A stretch of 64,000 nt of DNA. It comes from a virus. The position numbers and the translations under genes were made by a program. Positions 9,136-47,702 of the stretch are shown piece by piece; position 1 is the first letter of the stretch; the number at the start of each line of letters is the position of its first letter. The notes under the pieces were generated by a model that saw only the letters and a list, made by a program, of their open reading frames with translations, made no database searches and was not told where the DNA came from. The DNA is taken from positions 21,155 through 85,154 of the IMG/VR virus record IMGVR_UViG_3300009593_000014; one strand, 5' to 3'.

Positions 9136-9633
9136 CTAAACATTAAACAATCTTTCATGGTCTATAGTTTTTAACTCCGGTTTTGAATCATTTAGTTGTC
9201 GTGACCATCTTTGTTTTCGACCATTCGGCTGATCGTTCCTTCTAGGTCCACTTGTGTGCTTCCATTCTCTACCAAAAGTTAAGGTTTCAAACTTCCATCC
9301 TGAAGCTTTCAGGCTTGAGCCCATTTCTTCTTCTAAAATGTATGTTTGAATACTCTCAAAACCCATTTCTTTAGCAGCCCTAGCTGCTGCTGAGTAGAGT
9401 TGAGAGCAAGCATTTTTACTACCATCAGTAACGAGCCTAGTAACCTCAACTATTTTGTTAGGATCACAACCACGCGCAACCGGTCTGCCAACAATAACAG
9501 CACCAACCAGAACACCTTCGTCATCGACTAAACCCAAACTAAAGCGATGACCGCGAACAGGTTTGTGGTGTCTATGAGCCTTAGTGACCAAATCATTGGC
9601 AACCTTAAGAGTCACAGGTATTATGCTGTGCAT
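9136..9633 (-). CDS. XF1762-like (GNAT-like fold) protein
   Basis: 165 residues with features I associate with the XF1762 family: AHRHHKPVRGHRFSLGL near the start, VGRPVAR near residue 50, and EVTRLVTDGSKNACSQLY near residue 66. The pattern suggests an acyltransferase-like fold. This family is common in phages, but its reaction is not established to my knowledge. A basic tail with several Arg and Lys could contact nucleic acid. It sits next to the DPPY methyltransferase, so a joint role in nucleic-acid modification is an inference. Confidence 0.65.
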   Translation of the reverse strand: MHSIIPVTLKVANDLVTKAHRHHKPVRGHRFSLGLVDDEGVLVGAVIVGRPVARGCDPNKIVEVTRLVTDGSKNACSQLYSAAARAAKEMGFESIQTYILEEEMGSSLKASGWKFETLTFGREWKHTSGPRRNDQPNGRKQRWSRQLNDSKPELKTIDHERLFNV

Positions 9634-32969: not shown

Positions 32970-33263
32970 ATGAAAAAAGAAGATCTAGAAATCAAAGTTT
33001 GGATAGATCAAGACTTGTGCACCGGAGATGGGTTGTGTGCTGAAATAGCACCGGCAGTTTTTCAAATGCATGATGACGGACTAGCTTATGTAAAAGAAAA
33101 AGACTGGCCTACCATCTACGGACCAGACGGAGCGCCCAAAGGCGAACCTGCTCTAAAGATGGCTGAAGGGTTGGCTGTAGTAGAGTCTGAAGATGTAGAG
33201 GCAACCATTGAGTCGGCAGAAGAGTGCCCCGGTGAATGTATCTTTATTGAATTGATGAACTAA
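32970..33263 (+). CDS. ferredoxin, [3Fe-4S]/[4Fe-4S] actinobacterial type
   Basis: 97 residues. CTGDGLC (Cys-x5-Cys) near residue 17 and EECPGEC near 85 give the cluster ligands of the single-cluster ferredoxins that serve P450s and other enzymes in actinobacteria. Usual proteins are 65-80 residues; this has an insert of about 25 residues (around 40-65). It would carry single electrons. It is encoded just before sugar-modifying genes, including a DegT-fold enzyme of the dehydratase type, whose relatives use iron-sulfur electrons, so a link is a reasonable inference. Confidence 0.8.
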   Translation: MKKEDLEIKVWIDQDLCTGDGLCAEIAPAVFQMHDDGLAYVKEKDWPTIYGPDGAPKGEPALKMAEGLAVVESEDVEATIESAEECPGECIFIELMN

Positions 33264-33280
33264 GCGCATCAATATTTTGA

Positions 33281-33286
33281 TATACT
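33281..33286 (+). promoter_or_regulatory. -10 element for a leaderless glycosyltransferase transcript
   Basis: TATACT 7 bases before the ATG at 33294, without a ribosome site between. The region around it is AT-rich. The same TATACT-to-ATG spacing occurs at 31313. Confidence 0.55.
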
Positions 33287-33293
33287 TAATATT

Positions 33294-34424
33294 ATGTCTA
33301 TCAATGTTTACCCGATGAGGGATGATCTGCTCAAAGCCTTGACCGAAGGTCAGGCAATATATTGGAACTCATCAACCTACTCTCCAAAAGAGGGCTATGG
33401 TTACGCATACTATAAATACACTCAGGCATTAAACAAGTTAGGAATTCACTGCATAACTCAATCAGACTTTGCACCAGAGCTAATAGATCTCTCTCATATT
33501 GTCAAATACGAAATGCTGTACGATGAAGGTCTTGAGCCTCCTTTGATTAACCACTGCCTACCTGAAATGTACTTACACACTAATTCTTACAATATAGGAA
33601 TGACATACTGGGAGACAGACGCTGTTCCAAATCACTGGATAGATTTTATGTACCGAATGGATGAAATATGGACTTCATCAAAGTATGTAAAGGATGTTTA
33701 CCTAAAACAAAATGTAAACGAAAAGATATTTGACTTCAATCAAGGAATTGATCCAGAGATATATAAAGTAAATTTCAATGAACCAGAAAGAGAACAGTTT
33801 ACTTTTTTATCGTTCGGATCTCCCTCGTCTAGAAAGAATGCTCAATACACATACGATGCATTTATGGAACTCTTCGGGGGTGATGAAAGATATCATCTCA
33901 TAATTAAATCATCTGGACCTTCGGATGTCAGGAATATACAAGAAGGAGTAAACCTAGGTGCTGTAAAGAATAGCTCTCAAGTAACAGTAATTGAAGAAAT
34001 GCTGTCGGAAGAAGAAGTTGCTCAGCTATTAAGAAGCGTGCATTGTTTGGTGTACCCAACATCAGGAGAAGGGTGGGGATTGGTTCCCTATTCCGCAATA
34101 GCCAGCGGGACCCCTACAATATGTACCAACGCTACGGCGTGCGAAGAGTATGCCGAGCTATCAATACCAATAGACTACACATGGAAAGAGCCATGGCAGG
34201 CTGCCGGTGTCTATTCTCATGGTGGGAAGTGGGCAATGCCTGACTTAAATCAACTTAGGGAAAAAATGCAAAGCGTTACTGAAAACTACGATGCATACAA
34301 AAGCATGACTATTAGATCAGCACAGACTTTGCAAAATACACATACTTGGGATAGGGTTGCTTTGAAAATGGGAAAACATTTGGTAGACTCTGGAATTATA
34401 AGCCAAATAAAAGTAGGAAAGTAG
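33294..34424 (+). CDS. GT4-family glycosyltransferase
   Basis: 376 residues, GT-B fold: LSFGSPSSRKNAQYTYDAF near residue 165 and the GT4 signature LVYPTSGEGWGLVPYSAIAS near 250, then HTWDRVA near the end. It is related to the enzyme at 29898-30893. With the aminotransferase-fold protein, CAP59-like transferase and FkbM methyltransferase downstream it forms a plus-strand sugar cluster, probably for a surface glycan or for glycosylating phage or host components. Confidence 0.85.
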   Translation: MSINVYPMRDDLLKALTEGQAIYWNSSTYSPKEGYGYAYYKYTQALNKLGIHCITQSDFAPELIDLSHIVKYEMLYDEGLEPPLINHCLPEMYLHTNSYNIGMTYWETDAVPNHWIDFMYRMDEIWTSSKYVKDVYLKQNVNEKIFDFNQGIDPEIYKVNFNEPEREQFTFLSFGSPSSRKNAQYTYDAFMELFGGDERYHLIIKSSGPSDVRNIQEGVNLGAVKNSSQVTVIEEMLSEEEVAQLLRSVHCLVYPTSGEGWGLVPYSAIASGTPTICTNATACEEYAELSIPIDYTWKEPWQAAGVYSHGGKWAMPDLNQLREKMQSVTENYDAYKSMTIRSAQTLQNTHTWDRVALKMGKHLVDSGIISQIKVGK

Positions 34425-34431
34425 AAAAATT

Positions 34432-35613
34432 ATGAGCAACATTAAATGGCCCCTCATAAACAACACAATAGAAGACAATCAAAAGTCTATAATGGCTGAC
34501 TTCATTATGAACTCAGATCGCTTCACTCAGGGCGAAAAGGTTAAAGAGTTTGAAAAAAAATGGTCTAAGTGGCAAGGTGCAAAACATTCTGTATTTGTTA
34601 ATTCTGGAAGCTCAGCAAACTTAATATTACTAGACGCTATAAAAGAACTCTACTTTCCAGAGAGAACTCCAAACATACTAGTACCTGCATGCACATGGTC
34701 AACAACACTTTCGCCTTTAATTACTTTGGGCTACAATCCTGTATTTTGTGATGTAAGCCTTAGTGACTATGGTTTTGACGTTACTGGTCGAAGCAGCCAG
34801 CCGGGACATCGGGTTGTGAGTGAAGACATAGACATTATATTTTTTACCCATCTACTGGGGCTTCCATCAAACGTTTCTTTGATGAAAAGTCTTTTCCCTA
34901 ACGCAATGGTGCTTGAAGATTGTTGCGAGGCTCATGGTGCATTAGTGAATGGCAATAAAGTTGGAAACCATGGTCAAGGCTCTACTTTTAGTTTTTACTA
35001 CGGACACCACATGACAACAATAGAGGGCGGCATGGTGTCAACAAATAACGACATACTATATGATAAGCTACTAGCAAAAAGATCTCATGGACTCGCTCGG
35101 GAAACTGAGCAACTGAAGTCCGTTAGTAAAAATTATTCAGACATTGACCCGAGATTTCTTTTTTTAACAACAGGATACAATGTCAGGAGTACTGAATTAA
35201 ATGCGGTACTTGGAATACACCAGTTAGACGACCTAGATGAATCCATATCAAAAAGACGTTCAAATTTTATAACATTCCGAACCATACTTCAAGATATTGG
35301 TGACATGTTCTTGTTTCCCAAAACAATTGGGAATAGTTCTTTTGCACTACCTTTCATGTGCAAGGACGTAGATAAAAACAAGCTAGAGTCGTATTTGCAA
35401 TCTCAAGGAATTGAGACCAGACCATTCTTGGCTGGCAATATGCTTCGTCAACCTTTTCTACATTATTTAGATAATGATCCAAAAGACTATCCAAATGCGG
35501 AGTTTTTACATAATAATTGTTTCTACATAGGAAACAATCAACACATCGGACTAAAAGAACTAAACTGGCTGAATGGAGTGCTGCGTGAATTTTTTAATAT
35601 GCACAATAGTTAG
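34432..35613 (+). CDS. DegT/DnrJ-fold PLP sugar enzyme with His in place of catalytic Lys (ColD/RfbH-like)
   Basis: 393 residues with the fold-type I PLP domain: NSGSSANLI (58-66), PACTWSTTLSP (85-95), LEDCCEAHGA (161-170, Asp that binds the pyridine nitrogen). In aminotransferases of this family the next motif holds the Schiff-base Lys; here it reads FSFYYGHHMTTIEGG (186-200), with two His. The sugar 3-dehydratases ColD and RfbH/E1 share this change, so removal of the C3 hydroxyl of a 4-keto sugar is the likely reaction rather than amination. The neighbouring ferredoxin would suit an E1-type electron need. Confidence 0.82.
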   Translation: MSNIKWPLINNTIEDNQKSIMADFIMNSDRFTQGEKVKEFEKKWSKWQGAKHSVFVNSGSSANLILLDAIKELYFPERTPNILVPACTWSTTLSPLITLGYNPVFCDVSLSDYGFDVTGRSSQPGHRVVSEDIDIIFFTHLLGLPSNVSLMKSLFPNAMVLEDCCEAHGALVNGNKVGNHGQGSTFSFYYGHHMTTIEGGMVSTNNDILYDKLLAKRSHGLARETEQLKSVSKNYSDIDPRFLFLTTGYNVRSTELNAVLGIHQLDDLDESISKRRSNFITFRTILQDIGDMFLFPKTIGNSSFALPFMCKDVDKNKLESYLQSQGIETRPFLAGNMLRQPFLHYLDNDPKDYPNAEFLHNNCFYIGNNQHIGLKELNWLNGVLREFFNMHNS

Positions 35614-36292
35614 AAATCGTGCCCAACGACTACCTATGTGGGAAAGTCAACTATCAGAACTAACAAAAATGCGACCCGATGACTCTTTTGAGCTATCTGT
35701 TTACGAAAACGACTCAGATGATGATTCCTTGGCTACTTTGATGTCTTTTGGTTATGAAGGATTTGACGCTGTTCGTATAAAAACCGAAACACTTAACACA
35801 CCATATTTTGGAAGCGTTCAGGACTCAGAAAGAGTGCGACTGCTTGCCAATGCAAGAAACCAATGCTTAGACTATCACAATCTAAAGAAATTTGATAAAA
35901 TAATTTTTGTTGAACCCGATGTTGAATATAAGATACCAGAAGTGTTGGAAATAATTAACCTAGATGCTGACATAGCTTCAGGCAAGACAGTGACCTTCGG
36001 TTCAGATATAGTTTACGACACTTGGGCAACCAGACTAAACTGGCTAGATAAGGAATGGGACAACACATACACCGGATCAGGCTGGATAAAAGTATGGTCA
36101 ACATTTAATGGGTTCTGCGTATACAACGCCGAGCCGTTTTATTTACACAATGCAAGATTTTCAGGCGGGGATTGTGATACAGTACAGATATGTAAAGAAT
36201 TTCAAAACTTAGGGTATAGTGATGTTTACTTCAATATGGACATTGAAATACTTCACCATACTGACAGTACTGAATATCAAATAGGAATATAG
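35573..36292 (+). CDS. CAP59/GT2-like glycosyltransferase
   Basis: About 239 residues; an in-frame GTG at 35585 is an alternative start, and the frame overlaps the previous gene by about 40 bases. NFLICTIVRNRAQRLPMW opens a GT-A type nucleotide-binding domain; IIFVEPDVEY near residue 110 holds a DxD-like acidic site; later FNGFCVYNAEPF and SGGDCDTVQIC resemble CAP59-type mannosyltransferases. It probably adds a sugar made or modified by the neighbouring enzymes. Confidence 0.7.
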   Translation: MECCVNFLICTIVRNRAQRLPMWESQLSELTKMRPDDSFELSVYENDSDDDSLATLMSFGYEGFDAVRIKTETLNTPYFGSVQDSERVRLLANARNQCLDYHNLKKFDKIIFVEPDVEYKIPEVLEIINLDADIASGKTVTFGSDIVYDTWATRLNWLDKEWDNTYTGSGWIKVWSTFNGFCVYNAEPFYLHNARFSGGDCDTVQICKEFQNLGYSDVYFNMDIEILHHTDSTEYQIGI

Positions 36293-36305: not shown

Positions 36306-37298
36306 ATGATAGATGGGTTGGCTTTACACCCCCGACACTTATCAGTCTGCTCTGGTATCGGGGGAATCGACCTTGGACTTGAAGCAGCACTCGGAATTCG
36401 CACCGTGGGTCACATCGAAAGGGACGCTTTCGCAGCGAGCATTCTCGTGGAGAGGATGGTTGAACAGACCTTGGATTTCGCGCCTATTTGGGACGATATC
36501 AAGACCTTCGATGGCTCAGGATGGAGTGGATGTGTGGACATCCTATCTGCGGGAATCCCATGTCAGTCTTTTTCGCATGCCGGTAACAGGAAGGGAACAG
36601 ATGACCCAAGATGGCTTTGGCCTGACGTTTATAGAATTAGTAAGGACTGCAGGCCGGGCCAGATCTTTATTGAAAACACACCGGGACTTGTCAAAAAAGG
36701 ACTTTATGAAGTTCTCTTCGATCTTGCCGAAATGGGGTACAATGCGGAATGGGGAGTGTTCAACGCAAGTGACGCATCCGCGCCCCATAGAAGACAACGC
36801 TTATTCCTTTTGGCCCACCACAGCGAACTCGACCTACAGCCATGGATTGAACAGGCCAGCGCTTGCACAGAGCTTAGATACAGTGCCATGGGCGACTCCT
36901 ACTGCGAATATCTGGAAAGAGACTGGTCCAAACATAGACTGGGATATGCGAGACCAGAACAGGATAACGAATTTAGCGGTTCAGGCAAAGCTATGGCCTA
37001 CTCCAATCACAGTGGACAGTTTAGGAGGCCATCGTCTGACCGGGAAAAACAAAGACGCAAAAAACATTGGTCTTTCTCTTACGGACGCTTCCCACCTGCA
37101 CGAAACGACGCAGAAGGATGGTCAAGATGGGTCGAACGAGGACTACCTAAACCCATCATTCGTGGAGGCAATGATGGGTCTGCCCATAGGGTGGACAGAC
37201 TTCGGACCCTTGGAAATTCAGTAGTACCACAATGCGTAACATTGGCATATACTGTATTATTAGATAGAATGTCTAGTGAACCACAACCAGTGAGGTAA
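36306..37298 (+). CDS. DNA cytosine-5 methyltransferase
   Basis: 330 residues with the C5-methyltransferase motifs in order: HLSVCSGIGGIDLG (motif I, 11-24), IPCQSF with catalytic Cys86 (motif IV), ENTPG (123-127, usually ENV), HRRQRLF (161-167, motif VIII) and RTLGNSVVPQ near 305 (motif X). It would methylate phage DNA against host restriction. The target-recognition region (about 175-290) is poorly conserved in look. The ATG at 36306 is only 2 bases after AGGAGG. An almost equally long second frame lies inside this gene. Confidence 0.9.
   Translation: MIDGLALHPRHLSVCSGIGGIDLGLEAALGIRTVGHIERDAFAASILVERMVEQTLDFAPIWDDIKTFDGSGWSGCVDILSAGIPCQSFSHAGNRKGTDDPRWLWPDVYRISKDCRPGQIFIENTPGLVKKGLYEVLFDLAEMGYNAEWGVFNASDASAPHRRQRLFLLAHHSELDLQPWIEQASACTELRYSAMGDSYCEYLERDWSKHRLGYARPEQDNEFSGSGKAMAYSNHSGQFRRPSSDREKQRRKKHWSFSYGRFPPARNDAEGWSRWVERGLPKPIIRGGNDGSAHRVDRLRTLGNSVVPQCVTLAYTVLLDRMSSEPQPVR
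36313..37224 (+). CDS. overlapping +1-frame protein of the MxWLYTP / LNPxFVExMMGxPxGWTD family
   Basis: 303 codons open in the +1 frame, entirely inside the methyltransferase gene. The product begins MGWLYTPDT and carries motifs I recognise from a phage/prophage family commonly found near cytosine methyltransferases: SRPSMAQDGVDVWTSYLR, PKWGTMRNGEC near residue 172, two WPTP repeats, and LNPSFVEAMMGLPIGWTDF near the end. The ATG at 36313 is 9 bases from AGGAGG, a better spacing than the outer start. The family's function is unknown to me. The alternative is that it is a chance shadow, but family motifs across the whole length argue against that. Confidence 0.6.
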   Translation: MGWLYTPDTYQSALVSGESTLDLKQHSEFAPWVTSKGTLSQRAFSWRGWLNRPWISRLFGTISRPSMAQDGVDVWTSYLRESHVSLFRMPVTGREQMTQDGFGLTFIELVRTAGRARSLLKTHRDLSKKDFMKFSSILPKWGTMRNGECSTQVTHPRPIEDNAYSFWPTTANSTYSHGLNRPALAQSLDTVPWATPTANIWKETGPNIDWDMRDQNRITNLAVQAKLWPTPITVDSLGGHRLTGKNKDAKNIGLSLTDASHLHETTQKDGQDGSNEDYLNPSFVEAMMGLPIGWTDFGPLEIQ

Positions 37299-38086: not shown

Positions 38087-38419
38087 ATGGAAGATATAAC
38101 ACACCCAGAAAATAATAACATTTCAAGAAAAGACGGAAGTCAATTCTGGTATGAACTTAGCGAAGCCAATCCTGATGCCATTCTTTTTGATGGACCGGGC
38201 GATGATGATTTTTTTGATTCATGCATCGTAGGTTACGCTTGGAGAATAAATATGGAACCTGTTGTTGTTTATGATGAAGAAAAAATGATAGAAGTAATGA
38301 TGTTTGAAGGAGAGCTATCCTATGAAGAAGCAGTCGAATATTTATCTTTTAATACTTTTGGCAGTTGGTTTGGAGATGGAACTCCTCTTATATTGAGATC
38401 ATCAAAGAATGTACTGTAA
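38087..38419 (+). CDS. acidic protein of unknown function
   Basis: 110 residues, Asp/Glu-rich (ILFDGPGDDDFFDS near residue 36). Its stop overlaps the start of the DpdA-like gene as TAATG, so the two are translationally linked. No family recognised. It might be a partner of the transglycosylase. Confidence 0.55.
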   Translation: MEDITHPENNNISRKDGSQFWYELSEANPDAILFDGPGDDDFFDSCIVGYAWRINMEPVVVYDEEKMIEVMMFEGELSYEEAVEYLSFNTFGSWFGDGTPLILRSSKNVL

Positions 38420-39165
38420 TGAAGGAAGCGGAGTTTTTCTTAGGCTGCCCCGAGCCTTATTGGTTGCGTAGAGATGATGTCACTGGTCCCTTCTTTGTGT
38501 CCAGACCGAGATTAGCAAGGCTTAAGAATCTTCATAAATCCAAACACAAATGGGCACTAGATTCAGGCGGGTTTACGCAGTTACATCAGCATGGGGCTTG
38601 GACAATCTCCTCGCAAGAATATGCCAACTTTGTAAAAAGATGTGACGACGAGATTGGCAATCTAGAATGGGTAGCGCCACAAGACTGGATGTGTGAAGAA
38701 ACAGCACTTCGTAAGAGTGGGTTAACCGTTAAGGAGCATCAAGATCGAACGGTTGATAACTTCTTAGATCTTAGACAAAAACTAGGCTCACTTGTTATTC
38801 CAGTCCTTCAGGGGTGGGATCGTGATGATTATCTAAAGTGCTGTGATTTATACGAGAAAGCCGGTGTGGATCTATCTTTAGAAAATGTTATAGGCTTAGG
38901 AAGCGTCTGCAGAAGGAATGCAGACAAAGAAATATCTGAGATAATCGACACTCTGCAGCCACTTAATCTTCACGGTTTTGGAATTAAAGGAAAATCCTAT
39001 GTAGACAACTACAATAAATTAGTATCTGCAGACTCAATGGCTTGGTCATTTACCGCTAGGCATTCAGATCCATTGCCCAACTGTAGCCATAGGAAATGCA
39101 GTTGGTGCTATGAATATGCAGACCTTTGGAGGGGTCGGATACTGAGTAGACTTGCGCCTGTTTGA
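38419..39165 (+). CDS. DpdA-like (TGT-fold) DNA transglycosylase
   Basis: 248 residues from the ATG at 38419. ALDSGGFTQL near residue 44 matches the DSGGFQ active-site loop of tRNA-guanine transglycosylases; APQDWMCEE near 89 and VIPVLQGWDRDDY near 130 follow as in phage DpdA proteins; CSHRKCSWCYE near 222 gives the zinc ligands. DpdA enzymes exchange guanine in DNA for a 7-deazaguanine base, protecting phage DNA from restriction. No preQ0 synthesis genes (folE, queD, queE) are in the window, so the base would come from the host or from genes elsewhere. Confidence 0.78.
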   Translation: MKEAEFFLGCPEPYWLRRDDVTGPFFVSRPRLARLKNLHKSKHKWALDSGGFTQLHQHGAWTISSQEYANFVKRCDDEIGNLEWVAPQDWMCEETALRKSGLTVKEHQDRTVDNFLDLRQKLGSLVIPVLQGWDRDDYLKCCDLYEKAGVDLSLENVIGLGSVCRRNADKEISEIIDTLQPLNLHGFGIKGKSYVDNYNKLVSADSMAWSFTARHSDPLPNCSHRKCSWCYEYADLWRGRILSRLAPV

Positions 39166-39211
39166 TATTCGGTGTATCATTGCATAGCAAGAAAAAGGAA
39201 GGAAGTCTATT

Positions 39212-39514
39212 ATGAGTGATATTTGCCCAGAAAGTATGGAAAAACTAGTATTTGCTGGTGAATCAATTACTATCAAGCTTGACTTTTGGTTCGATTCCGA
39301 TCATTTTGATGACCAAGAAGAGGTTGATGAAGCTATAAGCTTCTGTCAGACAGGAGAGTTCGCATTCTGGGTTCAAGAAGCCGCAGATGCTCTGGTAGCC
39401 TCCGCTATGCACGAGTTTACGAGCACATACTCCGACTCTCCAGTTGCGAACTTGGAAAAACCATTAGGCATTACGATGTCTGCAGATATAACTTATGGCG
39501 GACCTCGTGATTAA
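39212..39514 (+). CDS. unknown protein between DpdA-like and PP-loop genes
   Basis: 100 residues, acidic, with a beta-rich start (GESITIKLDFWFDSDHF) and a helical C-terminal half. A GGAAGGAAG ribosome site lies upstream; its stop overlaps the PP-loop start (TAATGAG). Unrecognised; linkage suggests a role with the PP-loop protein. Confidence 0.55.
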   Translation: MSDICPESMEKLVFAGESITIKLDFWFDSDHFDDQEEVDEAISFCQTGEFAFWVQEAADALVASAMHEFTSTYSDSPVANLEKPLGITMSADITYGGPRD

Positions 39515-40314
39515 TGAGAACATTTAGCTTCGGTGGCGGTGTCCAATCAACTGCTGTATTGGCATTACAAGCTTTAGGCGAACTACCTAAACCATACGAT
39601 GTGTATTTGTTCTCCAACGTAGGCAACGATAGTGAAGATCCTGAAACTATATCTTACTTTCACAACCACCACCTGCCTTTTGCTGAGAAGCATGGGATAC
39701 GCATAATTGAATTAATCAAGGAAAGCCGGGGCAGAGAGAATGAGACACTATGGGAGCAACTTCACCGAATGGAAGTTAGGTCTATCCAGATACCTGCATA
39801 CAGGGTAGGAAAAGGACCCGGGGGTAGAAAATGCACCAGAGATTACAAGATTCGTGTAGTTAGGAAATGGCAAAGACAAAACGGATCATCTAAAGATAAC
39901 CCTGTAGTGATGGGGTTAGGAATTAGTGTAGATGAGATCCAAAGAGCACGAACCAGTTCCCGACATGAGGACCAGATACTAGAATATCCCTTAATTGACC
40001 TAGGAATGGACCGTGACGACTGCTTTGAAGTCATAAAAAGAGCAGGATTACCCACTCCTCCACGTTCAGCGTGCTTCTTTTGCCCCTTTCACAGTAAAAA
40101 AGCGTGGATAGATCAAAAAGAAAACCGTCCAGAGCTATTCGCTAAGTCAGTAGCGCTGGAGAAAGTCCTATTGGAACGGTGTGAAATACATGGAAAAGAA
40201 CCAGAATACCTTAGCAGATACGGTGTTCCTTTAGATGAAGCCTTCTCCGAATATGGAAACATCCCCGATGATGACGGTCCCGAAGGATGCGAAGAAGCAA
40301 GCTGCTTTACCTAA
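39514..40314 (+). CDS. PP-loop ATPase (PAPS reductase/QueC-like superfamily)
   Basis: 266 residues. FSFGGGVQSTAVLAL at the N-terminus is a PP-loop variant that binds ATP and activates substrates by adenylation. KCTRDYKIR near residue 108 and PRSACFFCPFHSKKAW near 185 add conserved Cys, as in phage proteins labelled phosphoadenosine phosphosulfate reductase. True PAPS reductases have a C-terminal ECGxH, which is absent. Next to a DpdA-like gene the likely role is nucleotide base or DNA modification (QueC-like or sulfur-related); the substrate is unknown. Confidence 0.7.
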   Translation: MRTFSFGGGVQSTAVLALQALGELPKPYDVYLFSNVGNDSEDPETISYFHNHHLPFAEKHGIRIIELIKESRGRENETLWEQLHRMEVRSIQIPAYRVGKGPGGRKCTRDYKIRVVRKWQRQNGSSKDNPVVMGLGISVDEIQRARTSSRHEDQILEYPLIDLGMDRDDCFEVIKRAGLPTPPRSACFFCPFHSKKAWIDQKENRPELFAKSVALEKVLLERCEIHGKEPEYLSRYGVPLDEAFSEYGNIPDDDGPEGCEEASCFT

Positions 40315-40836: not shown

Positions 40837-40970
40837 GCTGTGGTTCGTGGCTCGCTCGCTCGCTTCCTTTAACATCAGGAAGATATAAGTTTGGGCTGGT
40901 AAAAAAATTAGTGTGTATTTATAACAGTTATTATGTTTAAAAATAAATAAAAGAAATTTGTGTTAAAAGG

Positions 40971-40998
40971 TTGACATAGTTGTTTGATGCTATATAAT
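40971..40998 (+). promoter_or_regulatory. consensus sigma-70/SigA promoter
   Basis: TTGACA (40971-40976), 16-base spacer, TATAAT (40993-40998). The strongest plus-strand promoter in the window; it drives the gene at 41032. Confidence 0.8.
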
Positions 40999-41031
40999 GA
41001 ACTTATCAAACAAAAGGCAGAGGAGCCAACA

Positions 41032-41361
41032 ATGCAAAAAGCAATGCGAAATATGACATCAGGAAACAACATAGAATGGTTGTCATTAGGCCGTGAATTC
41101 AACACGGCACAGTTCACAGGAACTCTTACCCATACTAACTTAATGAATGGTCACAGAGACGGAAACATACTAGGTGTAACAACTATAGAAGATAACGTAG
41201 CAATCACTAACTACATACAGTTTCCACATACTGAATCAATCAATGAGTGGATGAACAAAGAGGTTACACTAACTGCCTCAGTCAAGACCAGAAGACTACA
41301 ACACGCAGAAGAAGAAACCTATCTTCACACTGCTAACGCTTGGTCAATACGCTTAGCATAG
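41032..41361 (+). CDS. unknown small protein, first cassette
   Basis: 109 residues from the ATG at 41032, preceded by GAGGAG; a longer frame from 40984 would include the -10. Neutral, Thr/Asn-rich, beta-rich appearance, no membrane segment. Own promoter and terminator, so it is a single-gene unit. Unrecognised. Confidence 0.6.
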   Translation: MQKAMRNMTSGNNIEWLSLGREFNTAQFTGTLTHTNLMNGHRDGNILGVTTIEDNVAITNYIQFPHTESINEWMNKEVTLTASVKTRRLQHAEEETYLHTANAWSIRLA

Positions 41362-41377
41362 TTAACCAAAGAATAGA

Positions 41378-41405
41378 GACCGGCCCTTATGGGTCGGTCT
41401 TTTTT
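41378..41405 (+). terminator. intrinsic terminator
   Basis: Stem GACCGGCCC / GGGTCGGTC with loop TTAT and a T run; one G-T pair. Confidence 0.85.
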
Positions 41406-41597
41406 CTTTTGTATAGGGTATTCGATAAGCACTAGATCCAGGAGCTCCGCCTATCTGCCTGTGGTTCGTGGCTCGCTCGCTCGCTTCCTTTAACGTCAGG
41501 AAGATATGAATGGGGCAGTAGCTAGACTTAAGTATGTATTTGTAACTAGATATATGGTTAAAAGAAATAGTTAAAGTTTTTAGTTGCAAGGTTGGTA

Positions 41598-41626
41598 TTG
41601 ACTGTCAAATTTGTAAACTAGATATA
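41598..41626 (+). promoter_or_regulatory. promoter
   Basis: TTGACT (41598-41603), 17-base spacer, GATATA (41621-41626), 26 bases before the ATG at 41652. Confidence 0.6.
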
Positions 41627-41651
41627 TCGGCAAGAGTAAAGGATAAAACAA

Positions 41652-41948
41652 ATGCCACTAATAATAATAAACAAGACAGAAGAAATACCGGAAGAATGGA
41701 AGCAGCAAGACGGAAGATACCAAACACCAATGGTAATGGTTGACTTTGGCAACGTGCACAGTAATGGTGGTTTCGGTACTCACTTAACATTGGCCCCAAC
41801 AGTAGAGACCAGCGAATGGCGCAACGCTTATGGAATAGAGTTCCATCATGATGCAGGCGCTTATCGTCAAGTAACATCTGCACCGTGTAAGTTTATCGGC
41901 ATAGCACAAAACGACGGTTCCATCTTCTGGACTTATATTCCACAATAG
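41652..41948 (+). CDS. unknown small protein, second cassette
   Basis: 98 residues, no Cys pair, mixed alpha/beta look with His- and Gly-rich middle (SNGGFGTHLTLAPT). Flanked by its own promoter and terminator. Unrecognised. Confidence 0.6.
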   Translation: MPLIIINKTEEIPEEWKQQDGRYQTPMVMVDFGNVHSNGGFGTHLTLAPTVETSEWRNAYGIEFHHDAGAYRQVTSAPCKFIGIAQNDGSIFWTYIPQ

Positions 41949-41963
41949 GACAAAAGAGAGAAG

Positions 41964-41990
41964 CCGGCCCTTAATAGGGCCGGTTTTTTT
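41964..41990 (+). terminator. intrinsic terminator
   Basis: Perfect 8-bp stem CCGGCCCT / AGGGCCGG, loop TAAT, T run. Confidence 0.9.
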
Positions 41991-42126
41991 CGTTATATAG
42001 GGTGTTCGAGAAGCGTCTATTATTGAAGCTTCCCTGTCTTGCTGTGGTTCTTGGCTCGCTCGCTCGCTTCCTTTAACGTCAGGGGAATAGTAGTTTGGGC
42101 TGGACTAAGATTTAATACATAAATGA

Positions 42127-42155
42127 TTGCAAAACTAGACTTAAGACTATAAGAT
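42127..42155 (+). promoter_or_regulatory. promoter
   Basis: TTGCAA (42127-42132), 17-base spacer, TAAGAT (42150-42155), 31 bases before the ATG at 42187. Confidence 0.5.
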
Positions 42156-42186
42156 AAAAATATCAACAAAAATAAAGGATAAAGAT

Positions 42187-42363
42187 ATGACAATAACCAA
42201 TAAACAAGTACAGATATTCAACACGGTGGCTAATCAACCCCGCTGTTGGCACTGCGAGGAGGATCTCTATTCTGACCATGAGACCGCTCATAGAGAGTTC
42301 GTAATAACAATGCATCATGCCTTCCATATCGCGTGCTACTTCGACCACACAAACGATCAATAA
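42187..42363 (+). CDS. 58-residue zinc-binding protein
   Basis: ATG preceded by AAAGGATAAAG. CWHC near residue 20 and paired His and Cys near the end (HHAFHIACYF) could bind zinc in a treble-clef or HNH-like manner, though the catalytic set is incomplete. Part of the cassette series; the next repeat element starts right after its stop. Confidence 0.55.
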   Translation: MTITNKQVQIFNTVANQPRCWHCEEDLYSDHETAHREFVITMHHAFHIACYFDHTNDQ

Positions 42364-42457
42364 GGCTGTGTTTCGTGGCTCGCTCGCTCTCTCCCTTTAA
42401 CGTCAGGGGAATTTAGGCATATAGATACGGTGTTTTTAATAGGTATTTATTAAATGC

Positions 42458-42463
42458 TTGACA
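42458..42463 (+). promoter_or_regulatory. -35 element before the 42519 gene
   Basis: A consensus TTGACA with an AT-rich region after it, but no good -10 at normal spacing. Weak call. Confidence 0.3.
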
Positions 42464-42518
42464 AGACTATAACTATTAAATTAATCTGTAATTTATAAGC
42501 AACAGATGAGGAGACATC

Positions 42519-42683
42519 ATGGCTAAATATAAAGAAACCAAATGGGATATAAAGCCTAGTTACGACTATGAGGGTAAATGGGAAGTGTTCCATATTGGAC
42601 ATAGTAACTACGTTCGTAGCGTACACGACACACACGCTGAAGCATTAGCAGAAGCGCGGAGACTAGACAGGGAGAATAGATAA
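42519..42683 (+). CDS. 54-residue protein of unknown function
   Basis: ATG at 42519 preceded by GAGGAGAC. Aromatic N-terminal half and a C-terminal helix (HAEALAEARRLDREN) typical of small phage DUF proteins. Stop overlaps the next start (TAATG), so the two are translated together. Confidence 0.6.
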   Translation: MAKYKETKWDIKPSYDYEGKWEVFHIGHSNYVRSVHDTHAEALAEARRLDRENR

Positions 42684-42790
42684 TGTTAGATCCGATTTAT
42701 AGACGGCGTAGGATCGCTGTCAGCGCTTTATTGGCAGTGTTCGTATTCTGGTTCTCATATCTAGGCGGGGAACTGCTTAGTAGCCTTTAA
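42683..42790 (+). CDS. 35-residue membrane protein
   Basis: Starts on the stop of the previous gene. Four Arg precede one membrane segment (residues about 12-30), giving a clear N-in topology. Tiny membrane proteins like this are common in actinophage early regions; function unknown. Confidence 0.5.
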   Translation: MLDPIYRRRRIAVSALLAVFVFWFSYLGGELLSSL

Positions 42791-42920
42791 CCAGCAGGCT
42801 GTGTTTCGTGGCCCGCTCACTCTCTCCCTTTAACGTCAGAGAAACTATATACAAGGACATTATAGCTTTAATACATAATCCCCAACCGCTCGCTGTTGTT
42901 CGTTGGCTCGCTAAACCGCA

Positions 42921-43025: not shown

Positions 43026-43442
43026 ATGGCGATATCACCACTACCAAACAGCAACGCCCCGCTCATCGTTGCAGCTCCGGTAGCAATTAGTAGAGCAGGA
43101 AGGAAACGTGATCTTATGGCAACGGATTGGGGTCAAGCAATTGACCTATCCGAGATTGCAAAGTCTCGTCGTGGCGCAACAGCGACCTACGAGCAGGGAC
43201 TACTTGACGCACTTACTGAGGCATTCAGTAACGGTCAAGCACTTGCAGTGTCACCATTGGCAGTTCTTCAAGAGTCTTTTAAGACTGACGAAGAATACGC
43301 CAATGCGAAACAAGCCAACGCTGCAGAGATCAGGAAGCACTTCAACCGCTTGGTTGAATTGGGACTGATCGCTGACGGTTCAAAGGTGTCCATAAATTGG
43401 CACCCAGAGACCGGCGTTCCACAAGTTTCGCTTAAAGGGTGA
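43026..43442 (+). CDS. cassette-array protein, subtype A, copy 1
   Basis: 138 residues. An N-terminal leader of about 30 residues (MAISPLPNSN...) precedes the shared core WGQAIDLSEIAKSRRGATAT, EQGLLDAL, NGQALAV, then the A-type end with NAAEIRKHFNRLVE and SINWHPETGVPQVSL. The start at 43026 is kept because the copy at 45839 has the same leader, even in DNA (GATATCACCACT). A compact alpha/beta fold with a basic helix could bind DNA or RNA; the family is unknown to me. Confidence 0.75.
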   Translation: MAISPLPNSNAPLIVAAPVAISRAGRKRDLMATDWGQAIDLSEIAKSRRGATATYEQGLLDALTEAFSNGQALAVSPLAVLQESFKTDEEYANAKQANAAEIRKHFNRLVELGLIADGSKVSINWHPETGVPQVSLKG

Positions 43443-43473
43443 TTCTCGGTCCATCTGACTCTTAAACGAGGAA

Positions 43474-43508
43474 CCGGAGTGACTAGCAAGCACTTGGCAA
43501 CAGAACAA
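43474..43508 (+). other. conserved 3-prime element of subtype A genes
   Basis: GGAGTGACTAGCAAGCACTT and the following GGCAACAGAACAAA lie between the stop codon and the terminator. Identical sequence follows copy A2 (46281-46316); copy A3 (about 49178-49213) has a diverged version in which AGTG/CACT becomes AGTCGC/GCGACT, keeping a stem. Confidence 0.65.
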
Positions 43509-43514
43509 ACTACT

Positions 43515-43550
43515 AAAGAAGACCGGCTCGGGGGAGCCGGTCTTCTTCTT
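43515..43550 (+). terminator. intrinsic terminator
   Basis: Perfect 14-bp stem (43515-43528 with 43533-43546), loop GGGG, T-rich end. Confidence 0.9.
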
Positions 43551-43712
43551 TGTGTGGGTGCATATCAGGAGCTGCAGCTGCAACGAGTTCTGCTGTTGTT
43601 CGTTTGCTCGCTAAACCGCCAGATTGTGCATGCATGCATGGCAATATTTAATACGAATAGTTATGCAGCTAGAACTTAAATAAGGATTATCTACTGTCGT
43701 AAAATTCAAATG

Positions 43713-43742
43713 TTGTTGTTTGTGTTAATAGTTGGATACGAT
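43713..43742 (+). promoter_or_regulatory. promoter
   Basis: TTGTTG (43713-43718), 18-base spacer, TACGAT (43737-43742). The TTGTTG-TTT start recurs at 44534 and 46592. Confidence 0.5.
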
Positions 43743-43787
43743 CAGTTTTGTCATATTAAAAACATTTAACTTTGGAGGTTAAAAATT

Positions 43788-44297
43788 ATGAACGTTTACG
43801 GATCAGGAGGAGGGCTAGTAAATCTAAACGGTTTACATGATGGCGCAATGCCTCTTATGTGGAAATTAGCCTGTATACATATCGGGCTAGATATTGCACC
43901 CCTATTTAGAGGGTTCGCTATTGCTAAGACCCTTAATGATGTTTATTACGTCTACACCATGAATAGCGATAATGGTGTTAATTGGTGTATTGACTCATTT
44001 GTCGTCTATGACGAATATGGCGAGGGAATGCTGAACTGCCTTATGCACGTTCAGGCTGATGTAGCAGACCTACAAGAAGTAATAGATGGTGGCGGCAAAC
44101 GAGCGATATGGCTCGCTGACTACAATCCAGATAGCGGTGTTGACATTGGTTATGTAGATGAGAGGGAAGTAGAGGAAGCAGATATTTCTGTAGAAGATTA
44201 TGCCCGCTTCTATATCGGTCTTACCCAAGCGATCATTCAGCATGGCAATAGAGAAGATGGCGCTATCAGTTTTGATTGGACTAAGACAATTCCATAA
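43788..44297 (+). CDS. unknown protein inserted in the paralogue array
   Basis: 169 residues, preceded by GGAGGTT. Not related to the A/B family. A hydrophobic N-terminal third (residues 25-50), then acidic segments (VDEREVEEADISVEDYARFY). It uses the same promoter and terminator style as the paralogues and is bounded by repeat elements. Unrecognised. Confidence 0.65.
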   Translation: MNVYGSGGGLVNLNGLHDGAMPLMWKLACIHIGLDIAPLFRGFAIAKTLNDVYYVYTMNSDNGVNWCIDSFVVYDEYGEGMLNCLMHVQADVADLQEVIDGGGKRAIWLADYNPDSGVDIGYVDEREVEEADISVEDYARFYIGLTQAIIQHGNREDGAISFDWTKTIP

Positions 44298-44307
44298 GGC
44301 ACCTAAC

Positions 44308-44346
44308 AAAGACCCTCATGTTGCAGCTGCAGCGTGAGGGTCTTTT
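44308..44346 (+). terminator. intrinsic terminator
   Basis: Stem AAAGACCCTCA / TGAGGGTCTTT with a 16-base loop containing GCAGCTGC, followed by T residues. Confidence 0.85.
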
Positions 44347-44533
44347 TTGCTTTATGGGGTCTTGTCTTGAGTGTTCGAGGAGCCACTATTCCGACCAGCA
44401 GGTGGAAAATAGGGCTGTTGTTCGTTTGCTCGCTAAACCGCAAAATTGTGCATGCGTGCATGGCAATATTTAATGCGAATAGTTATTCAGCTGGAACTTA
44501 AATAAGGATTACCAGGTTCGAGAAAGTTGGATG

Positions 44534-44562
44534 TTGTTGTTTATATTAAAAATATGTATCCT
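44534..44562 (+). promoter_or_regulatory. promoter of paralogue B1
   Basis: TTGTTG (44534-44539), 17-base spacer, TATCCT (44557-44562). Confidence 0.5.
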
Positions 44563-44599
44563 CGGATATGTCATATTCAACTAAGAGAAAGGTTATGAC

Positions 44600-44929
44600 A
44601 TGGCAACATTAGACAACTGGGGAGAAGCAATAGATCTCTCCGAAATTAAGAAAGCGAAACGGGGTGCGACTGTTCATTTAGAACAGGGGCTTCTTGACTT
44701 CCTTTCTAAAACTTTAAGTGCTGGTCAAGCAGTAGCACTTACTGGTTTCACTATTGACCCTAAAAAATTCCCTGATGAGAAAGACGCAGGCAATGAACGC
44801 CAGCGCATTGGGGCAGTTATTCGTCGGCATGTTAATCATCTTCGTGATGAAGGATTAATCCCTGATGAGAAAGTGTCTATTAATTGGCACCCAGAAGCGG
44901 ACTATCCGCAGATTAGTTTCAAGTCTTAA
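44600..44929 (+). CDS. cassette-array protein, subtype B, copy 1
   Basis: 109 residues: NWGEAIDLSEIKKAKRGATV, EQGLLDFL, AGQAVALTGF, DPKKF, then the B-type NERQRIGAVIRRHVNHLRDE and VSINWHPEADYPQISF. The Arg-rich helix (RQRIGAVIRRHVNHLR) would be the most likely nucleic-acid contact. Lacks the A-type leader and the B-type leader hairpin. Own promoter and terminator. Confidence 0.75.
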   Translation: MATLDNWGEAIDLSEIKKAKRGATVHLEQGLLDFLSKTLSAGQAVALTGFTIDPKKFPDEKDAGNERQRIGAVIRRHVNHLRDEGLIPDEKVSINWHPEADYPQISFKS

Positions 44930-44944
44930 CTAATCCACTCGCTT

Positions 44945-44977
44945 AAGGCCCTCATGCTCCGGCATGAGGGCCTTTTG
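44945..44977 (+). terminator. intrinsic terminator
   Basis: Perfect 13-bp stem AAGGCCCTCATGC / GCATGAGGGCCTT, loop TCCG, T run. Confidence 0.92.
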
Positions 44978-45128
44978 CGTTTATGGGGTAAGTCCCAGGA
45001 CTAGAACGCTGTTGTTCGTTGGCTCGCTGACCGCCCAATTGTGCATACATGCGCGATGGTTTTTAATACGAATAGTTATGTAGTTAGTACTGAATTAGGA
45101 ACTATCGATAACCGAGAAAGTTAAATCG

Positions 45129-45158
45129 TTGTGTTTAGTTTAAAAGTTTGGTTACAAT
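45129..45158 (+). promoter_or_regulatory. promoter of paralogue B2
   Basis: TTGTGT (45129-45134), 18-base spacer, TACAAT (45153-45158). The B4 copy has the same spacer sequence. Confidence 0.6.
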
Positions 45159-45177
45159 CTCAAGAGTAAACATAACC

Positions 45178-45192
45178 GCCACCAGATGTGGC
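45178..45192 (+). promoter_or_regulatory. leader hairpin of subtype B genes
   Basis: GCCAC-CAGAT-GTGGC in the conserved leader GAGTAAACAYAACC...AGAAAG, 16 bases before the ATG. The same stem with loop TAT lies at 47298-47310 and with loop CTTT at 47941-47954. The stem is constant and the loop changes. Confidence 0.7.
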
Positions 45193-45207
45193 AGAAAGAG
45201 AAAAACA

Positions 45208-45537
45208 ATGGCAACAATGGATAACTGGGGTGAAGCAATAGACATCTCAGAAATTAAGAAAGCGAAAAGGGGTGCAACCGTTCAGCTTGAGCAGGGGCTC
45301 CTCGATTTTTTGCAAACCACGCTTGGCGCTGGTCAAGCAGTGGCGCTCACTGGATTTCAGATAGACCCTAAAAAGTTTTCTGACGAAAAAGATGCTGGCA
45401 ATGAACGCCAACGTATCGGTGCAGTGATCCGTAGGCACGTTAATTATCTTCGTGATGAGCAACTAATAGCCAACGAAAAAGTGTCAATCAATTGGCACCC
45501 TGAAGAAGACTATCCTCAGATTAGTTTTAAATCTTAA
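45208..45537 (+). CDS. cassette-array protein, subtype B, copy 2
   Basis: 109 residues from the ATG at 45208; a longer GTG frame from 45148 would cross the promoter. Over 80 percent identical by eye to copies B1 and B4, with the same core and the helix RQRIGAVIRRHVNYLRDE. Conserved leader with hairpin. Confidence 0.75.
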   Translation: MATMDNWGEAIDISEIKKAKRGATVQLEQGLLDFLQTTLGAGQAVALTGFQIDPKKFSDEKDAGNERQRIGAVIRRHVNYLRDEQLIANEKVSINWHPEEDYPQISFKS

Positions 45538-45553
45538 ATAGTCTCTTTCACTT

Positions 45554-45587
45554 AAAGCCCTCATGCTCCGGCATGAGGGCTTTTTGC
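45554..45587 (+). terminator. intrinsic terminator
   Basis: Perfect 13-bp stem AAAGCCCTCATGC / GCATGAGGGCTTT, loop TCCG, T run; nearly the same as that after B1. Confidence 0.92.
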
Positions 45588-45838
45588 TTTTTCCAACCAG
45601 CAGGTGGAAAAGTTGGGCTGGTAAAAGTTGGGGTTCTCATGGATTAAAGTTTGGAACTTTGCTAGTCCCAGGACTAGAAGCCTGTCGTTCGTTGGCTCGC
45701 TGACCGCAAAATTTAGTATGAACTTATGGCAATTTTTAATAGGAATAGTTCTGTAGCTAGTCCTGAACTAGGAACTATCGAGAACTTAAGAAAATAAAAT
45801 ATGTTTGAAAATATAAATTATGACGATAGGAATAAGGC

Positions 45839-46258
45839 ATGGAGATATCACCACTCAATAGAACTAGCGCCACGCCCATCGCTGACGCTATTGGGCAACC
45901 ACTAGGGCAGGAAGGATACTTGATTGCATTGGCAACTTCATGGGGGTCATCTATTGACCTTAGTGAGATCGTTAAAGCCTCTCGTGGCGCTACGGCGACA
46001 TATGAGGAAGGCTTGCTTGATGCTCTTGCTGAAACACTCGGTAAGGGTCAAGCATTAGCGTGCACACCTATGGCGGTACTTGCTTCTGACTACGCAGAAG
46101 AAGACGATTACCGCAATGCTAAGCAAACTAATGCGGCAGAATTGCGTAAGCACTTTAACCGCTTGGTGGAACTCAAAAAAGTTCCTGCTGGTTCTAAGAT
46201 TTCTATAAATTGGAATCCCGAAACCGGCGTGCCTCAAGTTTCGCTTAACAACAAATAG
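45839..46258 (+). CDS. cassette-array protein, subtype A, copy 2
   Basis: 139 residues. Leader MEISPLNRTSATPI as in copy A1, then WGSSIDLSEIVKASRGATAT, EEGLLDAL, KGQALACTP, NAAELRKHFNRLVE and SINWNPETGVPQVSL (Asn for the usual His). The 3-prime element of A genes follows. No clear promoter; TTGAAA near 45803 is possible. Confidence 0.75.
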   Translation: MEISPLNRTSATPIADAIGQPLGQEGYLIALATSWGSSIDLSEIVKASRGATATYEEGLLDALAETLGKGQALACTPMAVLASDYAEEDDYRNAKQTNAAELRKHFNRLVELKKVPAGSKISINWNPETGVPQVSLNNK

Positions 46259-46321
46259 GCAACTCACAATATGAGCAAGACTCGGAGTGACTAGCAAGCA
46301 CTTGGCAACAGAACAAAACTC

Positions 46322-46350
46322 AAGCCCCTCGCAGACGCGAGGGGCTTCTT
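46322..46350 (+). terminator. intrinsic terminator
   Basis: Perfect 11-bp stem AAGCCCCTCGC / GCGAGGGGCTT, loop AGAC. Confidence 0.9.
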
Positions 46351-46591
46351 ACTTTCTATGGGTTAATAGCCTCGCCTCGAGAACTGTATCGCTGTTCCTG
46401 GATCTAGGGCTGTCGTTCGTTGGCTCGCTTCCTTATAACTTTTAACGGTAGGAAAAATTGTTGTTCTCCCTGGTATGAATTAAGTGGATATTTCAAAACG
46501 ATAGTTAATCGTCCTGGTCTAAGACAAAACACTAACTGATTAAGCAGCAGGAGCTGAATTAGGAACTATTGACTACCGAAAAAATTAAATG

Positions 46592-46620
46592 TTGTTGTTT
46601 ATCTTAAAAGCCTGTATCTT
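46592..46620 (+). promoter_or_regulatory. promoter of paralogue B3
   Basis: TTGTTG (46592-46597), 17-base spacer, TATCTT (46615-46620). Confidence 0.5.
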
Positions 46621-46664
46621 CATATATTCAATAAACAACTATTAAACCTTAAGGAGGTTTTGTT

Positions 46665-46985
46665 ATTGACAATCAATGGGGCGAGGCCATAGACCCCTCG
46701 GAAATAAAGAAAGCAAAGAGAGGTGCGACTGTTCAACTAGAGCAGGGGCTACTTGACTTTTTGCAGGAAATACTCAACAACGGACAAGCGGCACAAGTCA
46801 CGGCTTACAAGATTGATCATAAAAAGTTCAAGACTGAAGATGCTGTAGCCAATGAGAAACAAAGAATCGGTGCAGTAATTCGCCGTCACGTTTCTCATCT
46901 CCGTGATGAGAAATTAATCGCCAATGCTAAAGTTTCGACTAATTGGCATCCTGAAGAAGATTATCCGCAGGTTTCATTCTCGTAG
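46665..46985 (+). CDS. cassette-array protein, subtype B, copy 3, probable AUU start
   Basis: 106 codons. The homologous frame begins DNQWGEAIDPSEIKKAKRGA and continues through the B core to YPQVSFS. There is no ATG, GTG or TTG in frame before the core; an ideal AAGGAGG (46651-46657) is 7 bases before ATT at 46665, exactly where homologues have ATG. AUU starts are rare (infC is the known example). A TTG at 46666 is in another frame and stops after a few codons. Either a true AUU start or a recently weakened gene. Confidence 0.65.
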   Translation: MDNQWGEAIDPSEIKKAKRGATVQLEQGLLDFLQEILNNGQAAQVTAYKIDHKKFKTEDAVANEKQRIGAVIRRHVSHLRDEKLIANAKVSTNWHPEEDYPQVSFS

Positions 46986-47000
46986 ATAATCTTCTCCCTT

Positions 47001-47055
47001 AAAGCCCCCTCATAGGTTCCTGTCAGCACTAGATCCTTTCTGAGGGGGCTTTTTG
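47001..47055 (+). terminator. intrinsic terminator with long loop
   Basis: Stem AAAGCCCCCTCA / TGAGGGGGCTTT, 28-base loop, T run. Confidence 0.85.
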
Positions 47056-47068
47056 GCGTTTATGGGGG

Positions 47069-47120
47069 AAGTTGGGGATCTCGTCTGTTTTTGGAAGTTG
47101 GGGATCTCGTCTGTTTTTGG
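47069..47120 (+). repeat. 26-bp exact tandem duplication
   Basis: AAGTTGGGGATCTCGTCTGT plus TTTTGG occurs twice in direct succession, a recent duplication between terminator and repeat element. Confidence 0.9.
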
Positions 47121-47248
47121 ATCTTGGGCTGTCGTTCGTTGGCTCGCTGACCACAAAATTGTGCATGCATGCATGACAATGTTTAATATGAATATTTCTG
47201 TAGCTAGTACTGAATTATGAACTATCGACTACCGAGAAACTTAATTAG

Positions 47249-47278
47249 TTGCATTTAGTTTAAAAGTTTGATTACAAT
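47249..47278 (+). promoter_or_regulatory. promoter of paralogue B4
   Basis: TTGCAT (47249-47254), 18-base spacer, TACAAT (47273-47278), followed by the B leader hairpin at 47298-47310. Confidence 0.6.
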
Positions 47279-47325
47279 GTCAAGAGTAAACACAACCGCC
47301 ACTATGTGGCAGAAGGATAAAGACA

Positions 47326-47655: not shown

Positions 47656-47673
47656 CTGGTCCCCTCGCTTAAG

Positions 47674-47702
47674 ACCCTCACGCTACGGCGTGGGGGTTTT
47701 TT
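47674..47702 (+). terminator. intrinsic terminator
   Basis: Stem CCCTCACGC / GCGTGGGGG with one G-T pair, T run. Confidence 0.85.

What the first reader, a model, noticed from the sequence alone, without database searches (positions are those of the whole stretch)
38087..40314. Candidate 7-deazaguanine or related DNA modification cassette
A DpdA/TGT-like protein is translationally coupled to an acidic unknown and followed by a small unknown and a PP-loop ATPase with extra Cys pairs, itself translationally coupled. Known phage systems pair DpdA with preQ0 synthesis genes, which are absent here, so the substrate source and the PP-loop role are open. A sulfur-bearing or otherwise new modified base is conceivable.
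Basis: partly seen in the sequence, partly recalled or inferred. Interest (0 to 1): 0.72.

Follow-up and report, generated by a model that had tools for sequence, protein, structure and literature searches.

The report
DpdA paired with SspD-like PP-loop enzyme
A phage of actinobacteria carries a gene that swaps guanines in DNA for a modified base, next to an ATP-using enzyme related to DNA-sulfur enzymes, and the same pairing turns up in other phages and in bacterial chromosomes, so it is probably a DNA-modification module with an unidentified product.

Summary
The cassette is real: acidic ORF (38087-38419), DpdA (38419-39165), small ORF (39212-39514), PP-loop protein (39514-40314), with two TAATG overlaps. 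The transglycosylase is a true DpdA (Pfam E 1e-72, TGT fold). It belongs to the known "singleton DpdA" group of actinophages, whose substrate source is an open question in the literature. The phage is an actinophage (two WhiB genes). QueC, QueD and the importer YhhQ are absent from its 85-kb record.

New here: the PP-loop is a recurrent DpdA partner. In a related phage the two genes overlap and fill the slot that holds a Mom + methyltransferase pair in the window phage. In 13 of 150 Pseudonocardiaceae genomes the order is PP-loop, YhhQ (in 12), DpdA, usually after DNA methyltransferases. The PP-loop tree needs at least two separate origins of the link. The PP-loop matches SspD (DNA phosphorothioation), folds like PAPS reductase and [4Fe-4S] thiolases, and has five invariant cysteines; it is not QueC. 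YhhQ, the preQ0 importer, lies beside many of these DpdAs.

Best reading: salvaged 7-deazaguanine is put into phage DNA by DpdA, and the PP-loop enzyme adds an ATP-dependent step, perhaps with sulfur. The chemistry is inferred.

The parts
38419..39165 (+). DpdA, TGT-fold base-exchange enzyme (248 aa)
   Evidence: PF23859 E 1e-72; AlphaFold pLDDT 95.2; VIA Z 18.8 to archaeosine TGT 1iq8, 17.8 to DpdA 7ui4; D48, D89, D205, H185 invariant in 61 homologues
39514..40314 (+). PP-loop ATP pyrophosphatase, PAPS-reductase/SspD-like (266 aa)
   Evidence: PHROG 424 E 1.8e-35; SspD E 4.8e-18; model pLDDT 88.8; VIA Z 12.5 to PAPS reductase, 10.7 NcsA, 10.6 LarE; five invariant Cys
39212..39514 (+). Small unknown ORF between DpdA and PP-loop, start-stop coupled to the PP-loop
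   Evidence: no phage homologue, none in fetched loci; role unknown
38087..38419 (+). Acidic ORF coupled to DpdA, PHROG 13182; probably incidental
36306..37298 (+). C5-cytosine DNA methyltransferase, same strand, upstream; same kind of gene lies beside other DpdA/PP-loop loci
   Evidence: PF00145 E 6.8e-34; C5 genes at other DpdA loci
9136..9633 (-). Mom-like DNA modification gene in the slot that the PP-loop+DpdA pair fills in related phage L106
   Evidence: PF25680 E 5.1e-7; PHROG 1384 E 3.1e-33; synteny with L106
8576..9121 (-). Methyltransferase-like partner of the Mom gene in that slot
   Evidence: PHROG 3816 DNA methyltransferase E 1.2e-13; Methyltransf_11 E 7.6e-5

Best explanation
It is a phage DNA-modification module of two working enzymes. 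DpdA exchanges guanines in the phage's own DNA for a 7-deazaguanine base of the preQ0 kind, taken from the infected cell because this phage has neither synthesis genes nor an importer. The PP-loop enzyme uses ATP to carry out a second step of the same pathway, on the base before or after insertion or on the DNA next to it; from its kinship with SspD and its conserved cysteines, sulfur transfer is the most likely chemistry. The likely benefit is escape from host restriction. Shown: family membership of both proteins, their recurrent physical pairing, the DNA-modification company they keep, and YhhQ next to many sister DpdAs. Inferred: substrate, product, order of steps and purpose.
For: DpdA by profile and fold. 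Related phage L106 has PP-loop and DpdA overlapping between endolysin and a head gene, where the window phage has a Mom + methyltransferase pair on the same synteny, so the pair moves together and swaps with another DNA-modification module. In 150 Pseudonocardiaceae genomes 31 have DpdA, 29 the PP-loop, 16 both (hypergeometric p 3e-6); 13 have them side by side where about 0.008 pairs are expected. Order PP-loop, YhhQ, DpdA in 12 of those 13, usually after N6/N4 and C5 DNA methyltransferases. PP-loop tree: two separate DpdA-linked clades, at least two changes forced. Other PAPS-type PP-loops beside DpdA in L150/L153 and at a second locus of G060. YhhQ at DpdA in up to 25 of 118 non-redundant groups, Pfam Vut_1 confirmed. 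QueC-QueD-DpdA operon in L140 suggests that this DpdA clade takes preQ0-type substrate. SspD match; fold near [4Fe-4S] thiolases.
Against: No chemistry was measured. Mycobacteriophage Orion, of the group whose cluster B1 DpdAs are about 44% identical to this one, had no detectable 7-deazaguanine, in a host without preQ0 (PMC6884629). This PP-loop family is common in phages without DpdA: of 80 fetched PP-loop loci none had DpdA. Most DpdA loci lack it. The 13 bacterial cassettes are one homologous family, so they are not 13 independent events. The host of this phage, and whether it has preQ0, is unknown. SspA, SspB and SspC are not seen in the record.
Confidence: 0.55

Rival explanations
1. The PP-loop protein replaces QueC: it makes the preQ0-type base from 7-carboxy-7-deazaguanine of the host, so the product is ordinary dPreQ0 or dADG.
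For: QueC is also a PP-loop ATPase and sits beside DpdA in L127 and L140, where the SspD-like gene does not.
Against: The QueC profile does not match and fold and family matches point to PAPS reductase/SspD. Twelve cassettes have YhhQ, which by established knowledge imports preQ0, the finished base. Nine of 13 cassette genomes also carry a full-length QueC, though in a different gene cluster.
Confidence: 0.17
2. DpdA works alone; the PP-loop gene is a sulfur-metabolism gene (as 'PAPS reductase' genes of phages are usually annotated) that lies nearby by chance.
For: The PP-loop family is widespread in phages without DpdA; gene order varies.
Against: Recurrent adjacency in two PP-loop lineages and in several PP-loop subfamilies; conserved operon with YhhQ.
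Confidence: 0.15
3. Two independent DNA marks travel together: DpdA changes bases and the SspD-like enzyme, with host sulfur donors, makes backbone phosphorothioates.
For: SspD match E 4.8e-18; the bacterial cassette already bundles methyltransferases with DpdA, so stacked marks are plausible.
Against: No SspA/B/C found in the record; why the link is to DpdA in particular is unexplained.
Confidence: 0.1
4. The DpdA is inactive or acts on tRNA, and the DNA is unmodified.
For: Orion DNA lacked modification (PMC6884629).
Against: Catalytic-type Asp residues and the Zn-site pattern are conserved; 248 aa with no tRNA-binding C-terminal domain; only the DpdA Pfam model matches; neighbours of relatives are DNA methyltransferases.
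Confidence: 0.08

Closest known systems
Singleton DpdA of mycobacteriophages (clusters K, B1; Orion) in PMC6884629
   Same: Same DpdA clade, 44-47% identical, no preQ0 genes
   Different: The mycobacteriophage loci inspected have no PP-loop or YhhQ annotated next to DpdA
Phage preQ0/dG+ pathways (Rosebush, CAjan, 9g)
   Same: DpdA inserts the base into phage DNA
   Different: Those phages encode FolE/QueD/QueE/QueC; QueC and QueD were tested and are absent here
Bacterial Dpd restriction-modification cluster
   Same: DpdA of TGT fold; solved DpdA 7ui4 aligns at Z 17.8
   Different: No DpdB/DpdC neighbours; a PP-loop and, in bacteria, YhhQ and methyltransferases instead
SspABCD / Dnd phosphorothioation (SspD, DndC)
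   Same: The PP-loop protein matches SspD at E 4.8e-18
   Different: SspA, SspB, SspC not found; partner is DpdA
PHROG 424 'PAPS reductase' genes of phages (P23-77, HTVC034P)
   Same: Same family
   Different: No DpdA next to those inspected

Membership tests
DpdA (PF23859) | Match to the family profile above curated cut-off | tested here: met
   245 bits against cut-off 27, E 1e-72
DpdA (PF23859) | TGT fold | tested here: met
   Z 17.8 to DpdA 7ui4, 18.8 to archaeosine TGT, 229-233 residues aligned
DpdA (PF23859) | Conserved catalytic-type Asp and Zn-site residues | tested here: met
   D48, D89, D205, H185 invariant; H224, C227, C230 nearly so. Their equivalence to TGT catalytic residues is by motif, from own knowledge
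DpdA (PF23859) | Inserts a 7-deazaguanine base into DNA | not testable with these tools
   Needs nucleoside mass spectrometry
tRNA-guanine transglycosylase | Match to a tRNA TGT profile | tested here: not met
   DpdA is the only Pfam hit up to E 0.1
Phage preQ0/dG+ biosynthesis group | QueC and QueD in the phage genome | tested here: not met
   No match in the 85,154-bp record; the record may be incomplete
Phage preQ0/dG+ biosynthesis group | FolE and QueE in the phage genome | tested here: inconclusive
   Not among displayed families; two families not displayed; not searched singly
QueC | PP-loop protein matches QueC profile | tested here: not met
   No Pfam hit for P0002; no QueC in record
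PAPS/APS reductase (CysH) | PF01507 match and alignment to a true APS reductase | tested here: not met
   No PF01507 hit; hhalign to two APS reductases not significant, although the fold is shared (Z 12.5)
SspD | Match to the SspD profile | tested here: met
   E 4.8e-18 over residues 104-219; PADLOC cut-offs not shown
Ssp phosphorothioation system | SspA, SspB, SspC alongside SspD | tested here: not met
   No such PADLOC hit in the scanned ORFs
Bacterial Dpd cluster | DpdB and DpdC next to DpdA | tested here: not met
   Neighbours are other families; one unlocated ORF elsewhere in the window matches DpdF at E 8.9e-10

The most novel reading that the evidence does not exclude
A sulfur-bearing 7-deazaguanine in DNA: DpdA inserts a salvaged preQ0-type base and the SspD-like, Fe-S type PP-loop enzyme thiolates it, a DNA base not yet described, shared by phages and by mobile modification islands of actinobacteria.
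Probability: 0.25. Interest if true: 0.87.

Novelty: new variant of a known kind. Interest (0 to 1): 0.62.

Why it matters
What the many DpdA genes without preQ0 synthesis genes use as substrate has been open since 2019 (PMC6884629, which saw no correlation of YhhQ with any phage group). Here YhhQ sits beside many of them and an SspD-like PP-loop enzyme beside others, in conserved operons of culturable actinobacteria. That makes both questions, substrate source and final product, directly testable without the uncultured phage, and points to a possible new DNA modification.

Tried and rejected
Acidic ORF as a partner: rejected as probable, no homologue at other DpdA loci. Small ORF P0004: no homologue found. 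A CysH-like role: hhalign to APS reductases not significant; QueC pair likewise, both with shallow two-sequence templates, so weak tests. QueC was also not among the listed fold matches of the PP-loop model, which excludes nothing. Sequence search of PDB with the DpdA profile gave nothing. The only solved sequence relative of the PP-loop is 'PptA' (21fy, E 4.4e-7); no paper on it was found. Literature searches for DpdA with PP-loop or PAPS reductase found no description of the pairing; the library is limited and the 2024 review on deazaguanines is not held. A careful DpdA tree did not finish in time; the quick tree was used. YhhQ count of 25 groups is an upper estimate: the profile was built here from seven seeds, one of them doubtful. 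Completeness of the record could not be judged.

Full report
Observation. DpdA starts at ATG 38419, overlapping the stop of the acidic ORF (TAATG); the PP-loop gene starts at 39514, overlapping the stop of the small ORF in the same way. The record is a linear virus contig of 85,154 bases, of which the window is 21155-85154. Two WhiB genes, found only in actinobacteria and their phages by established knowledge, and best DpdA matches in mycobacteriophages make it an actinophage, although its G+C is only 38.7%.

DpdA. The protein matches PF23859 at E 1e-72 and no tRNA TGT model. Its model (pLDDT 95) has the TGT fold. Asp48, Asp89, Asp205 and His185 are invariant in 61 homologues and a His/Cys metal-site pattern at 224-230 nearly so. 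About 400 phage records carry relatives, nearly all mycobacteriophages. This is the 'singleton' group of PMC6884629: DpdA without preQ0 genes, modification status unpredictable, and one member (Orion) measured as unmodified in a host without preQ0. So the absence of preQ0 genes is not new in itself.

Substrate. In this clade one phage contig (L140) has QueC, QueD and DpdA in one operon and another (L127) has QueC next to DpdA. A YhhQ-type transporter (PF02592), the known preQ0 importer, stands directly upstream of DpdA in many phage and bacterial loci: up to 25 of 118 non-redundant groups by a profile made here, several confirmed by Pfam. Both point to a preQ0-type substrate. The window phage has neither QueC, QueD nor YhhQ, so it must take the base from the host, if at all.

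The PP-loop partner. The protein belongs to PHROG 424 and matches SspD, the PP-loop component of the Ssp DNA phosphorothioation system, at E 4.8e-18; the bacterial cassette protein matches the same model at E 8e-11. Its model (pLDDT 89) is nearest to PAPS reductase (Z 12.5), GMP synthetase, and the [4Fe-4S] sulfur enzymes NcsA, LarE and TtuA (Z about 10-11); rows within 1 Z are tied, so the fold does not pick one function. C107, C170, C187, C190 and C259 are invariant in 57 homologues; C264 is in 52. The pattern C-T-x-x-Y-K plus C-x-x-C resembles the iron-sulfur ligand motifs of the APS reductase of G039 (C-C-x-x-R-K and C-x-x-C), but profile alignment did not support this formally, so it is a resemblance only.

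Recurrent pairing. In L106, a phage with syntenic genes mostly 45-82% identical, the PP-loop gene (3704-4501, 55% identical) overlaps the DpdA ORF (60% identical), and the two stand between endolysin and a head gene. In the window phage the same slot holds a Mom-like gene and a methyltransferase-like gene (8576-9633), while DpdA and the PP-loop lie 29 kb away. The pair therefore appears to move as a unit and to exchange places with another DNA-modification module. In L150/L153 a different PAPS-type gene follows DpdA with a 4-base overlap and a C5 methyltransferase comes next.

Bacterial cassettes. Of 150 Pseudonocardiaceae genomes, 31 have this DpdA, 29 the PP-loop, 16 both (expected about 6; p 3e-6), and 13 have the PP-loop just upstream of DpdA on the same strand, against 0.008 expected from random placement. 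In 12 of these 13 the gene between is YhhQ; in one (G039) there is none. Upstream lie an unknown protein, an N6/N4-type and a C5-type DNA methyltransferase in most; downstream often a site-specific recombinase. The 13 are one homologous, probably mobile family and count as one origin. The PP-loop tree puts the window/L106 genes and the bacterial cassette genes in two separate clades, with at least two changes forced. A second DpdA locus in G060 (a pseudogene) has yet another PP-loop type upstream. Full-length QueC occurs in 9 of the 13 cassette genomes against 18 of the other 137 (p 2.5e-5), about 46-51 kb from the cassette in four of them, but beside other genes, so no link to the cassette is claimed beyond co-occurrence.

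Mechanism. Best-supported: base exchange in phage DNA by DpdA with a preQ0-type base from the cell, plus an ATP-dependent step by the SspD-like enzyme. Shown are the families, the pairing and the company of DNA-modification genes. The identity of the second step is inferred. Sulfur transfer is favoured by the SspD match and the cysteines; amidation in the manner of QueC is the main chemical alternative; a separate backbone mark is possible.

Limits. No chemistry was measured, the host is unknown, the record may be incomplete, trees are quick trees, and gene calls in G+C-rich loci were made by simple rules. The PP-loop family is common without DpdA, so its activity cannot depend on DpdA everywhere.

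Verdict. A real, recurrent module: a known DpdA kind with a newly recognised SspD-like PP-loop partner and, in relatives, a preQ0 importer. New variant of a known kind.

Noticed in passing
window 8576-9633 (-): Mom-like gene plus methyltransferase-like gene between endolysin and a head gene: a second DNA-modification module in the same phage.
   Followed up: partly
window 43026-49143 (+): About seven or eight diverged copies of a roughly 110-140 aa gene ('NWGEAIDLSEI.KA.RGATV.LEQGLLDFL'), with terminator-like hairpins and repeated 'TTCGTTGGCTCGCT' stretches between them; no PHROG match for the copy tested.
   Followed up: partly
window 40837-42871 (+): Five copies of a 74-base repeat 'GCTGTGGTTCGTGGCTCGCTCGCTCGCTTCCTTTAACGTCAGG' after the cassette.
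   Followed up: no
window 32970-36292 (+): Ferredoxin, glycosyltransferases and a DegT aminotransferase in a row, upstream of the C5 methyltransferase.
   Followed up: no
window, one ORF of alignment A4 (21051-63917): One ORF matches the PADLOC DpdF model at E 8.9e-10; which ORF was not determined.
   Followed up: no
L265 2261-3415 and homologues in L261-L275: A 385-aa protein without Pfam, PHROG or PADLOC match begins the bacterial methyltransferase/PP-loop/YhhQ/DpdA cassette in all 15 loci.
   Followed up: partly
L282 and L283: Full-length QueC-family gene about 46-51 kb from the cassette, in several cassette genomes, beside genes that are not the preQ0 pathway.
   Followed up: partly
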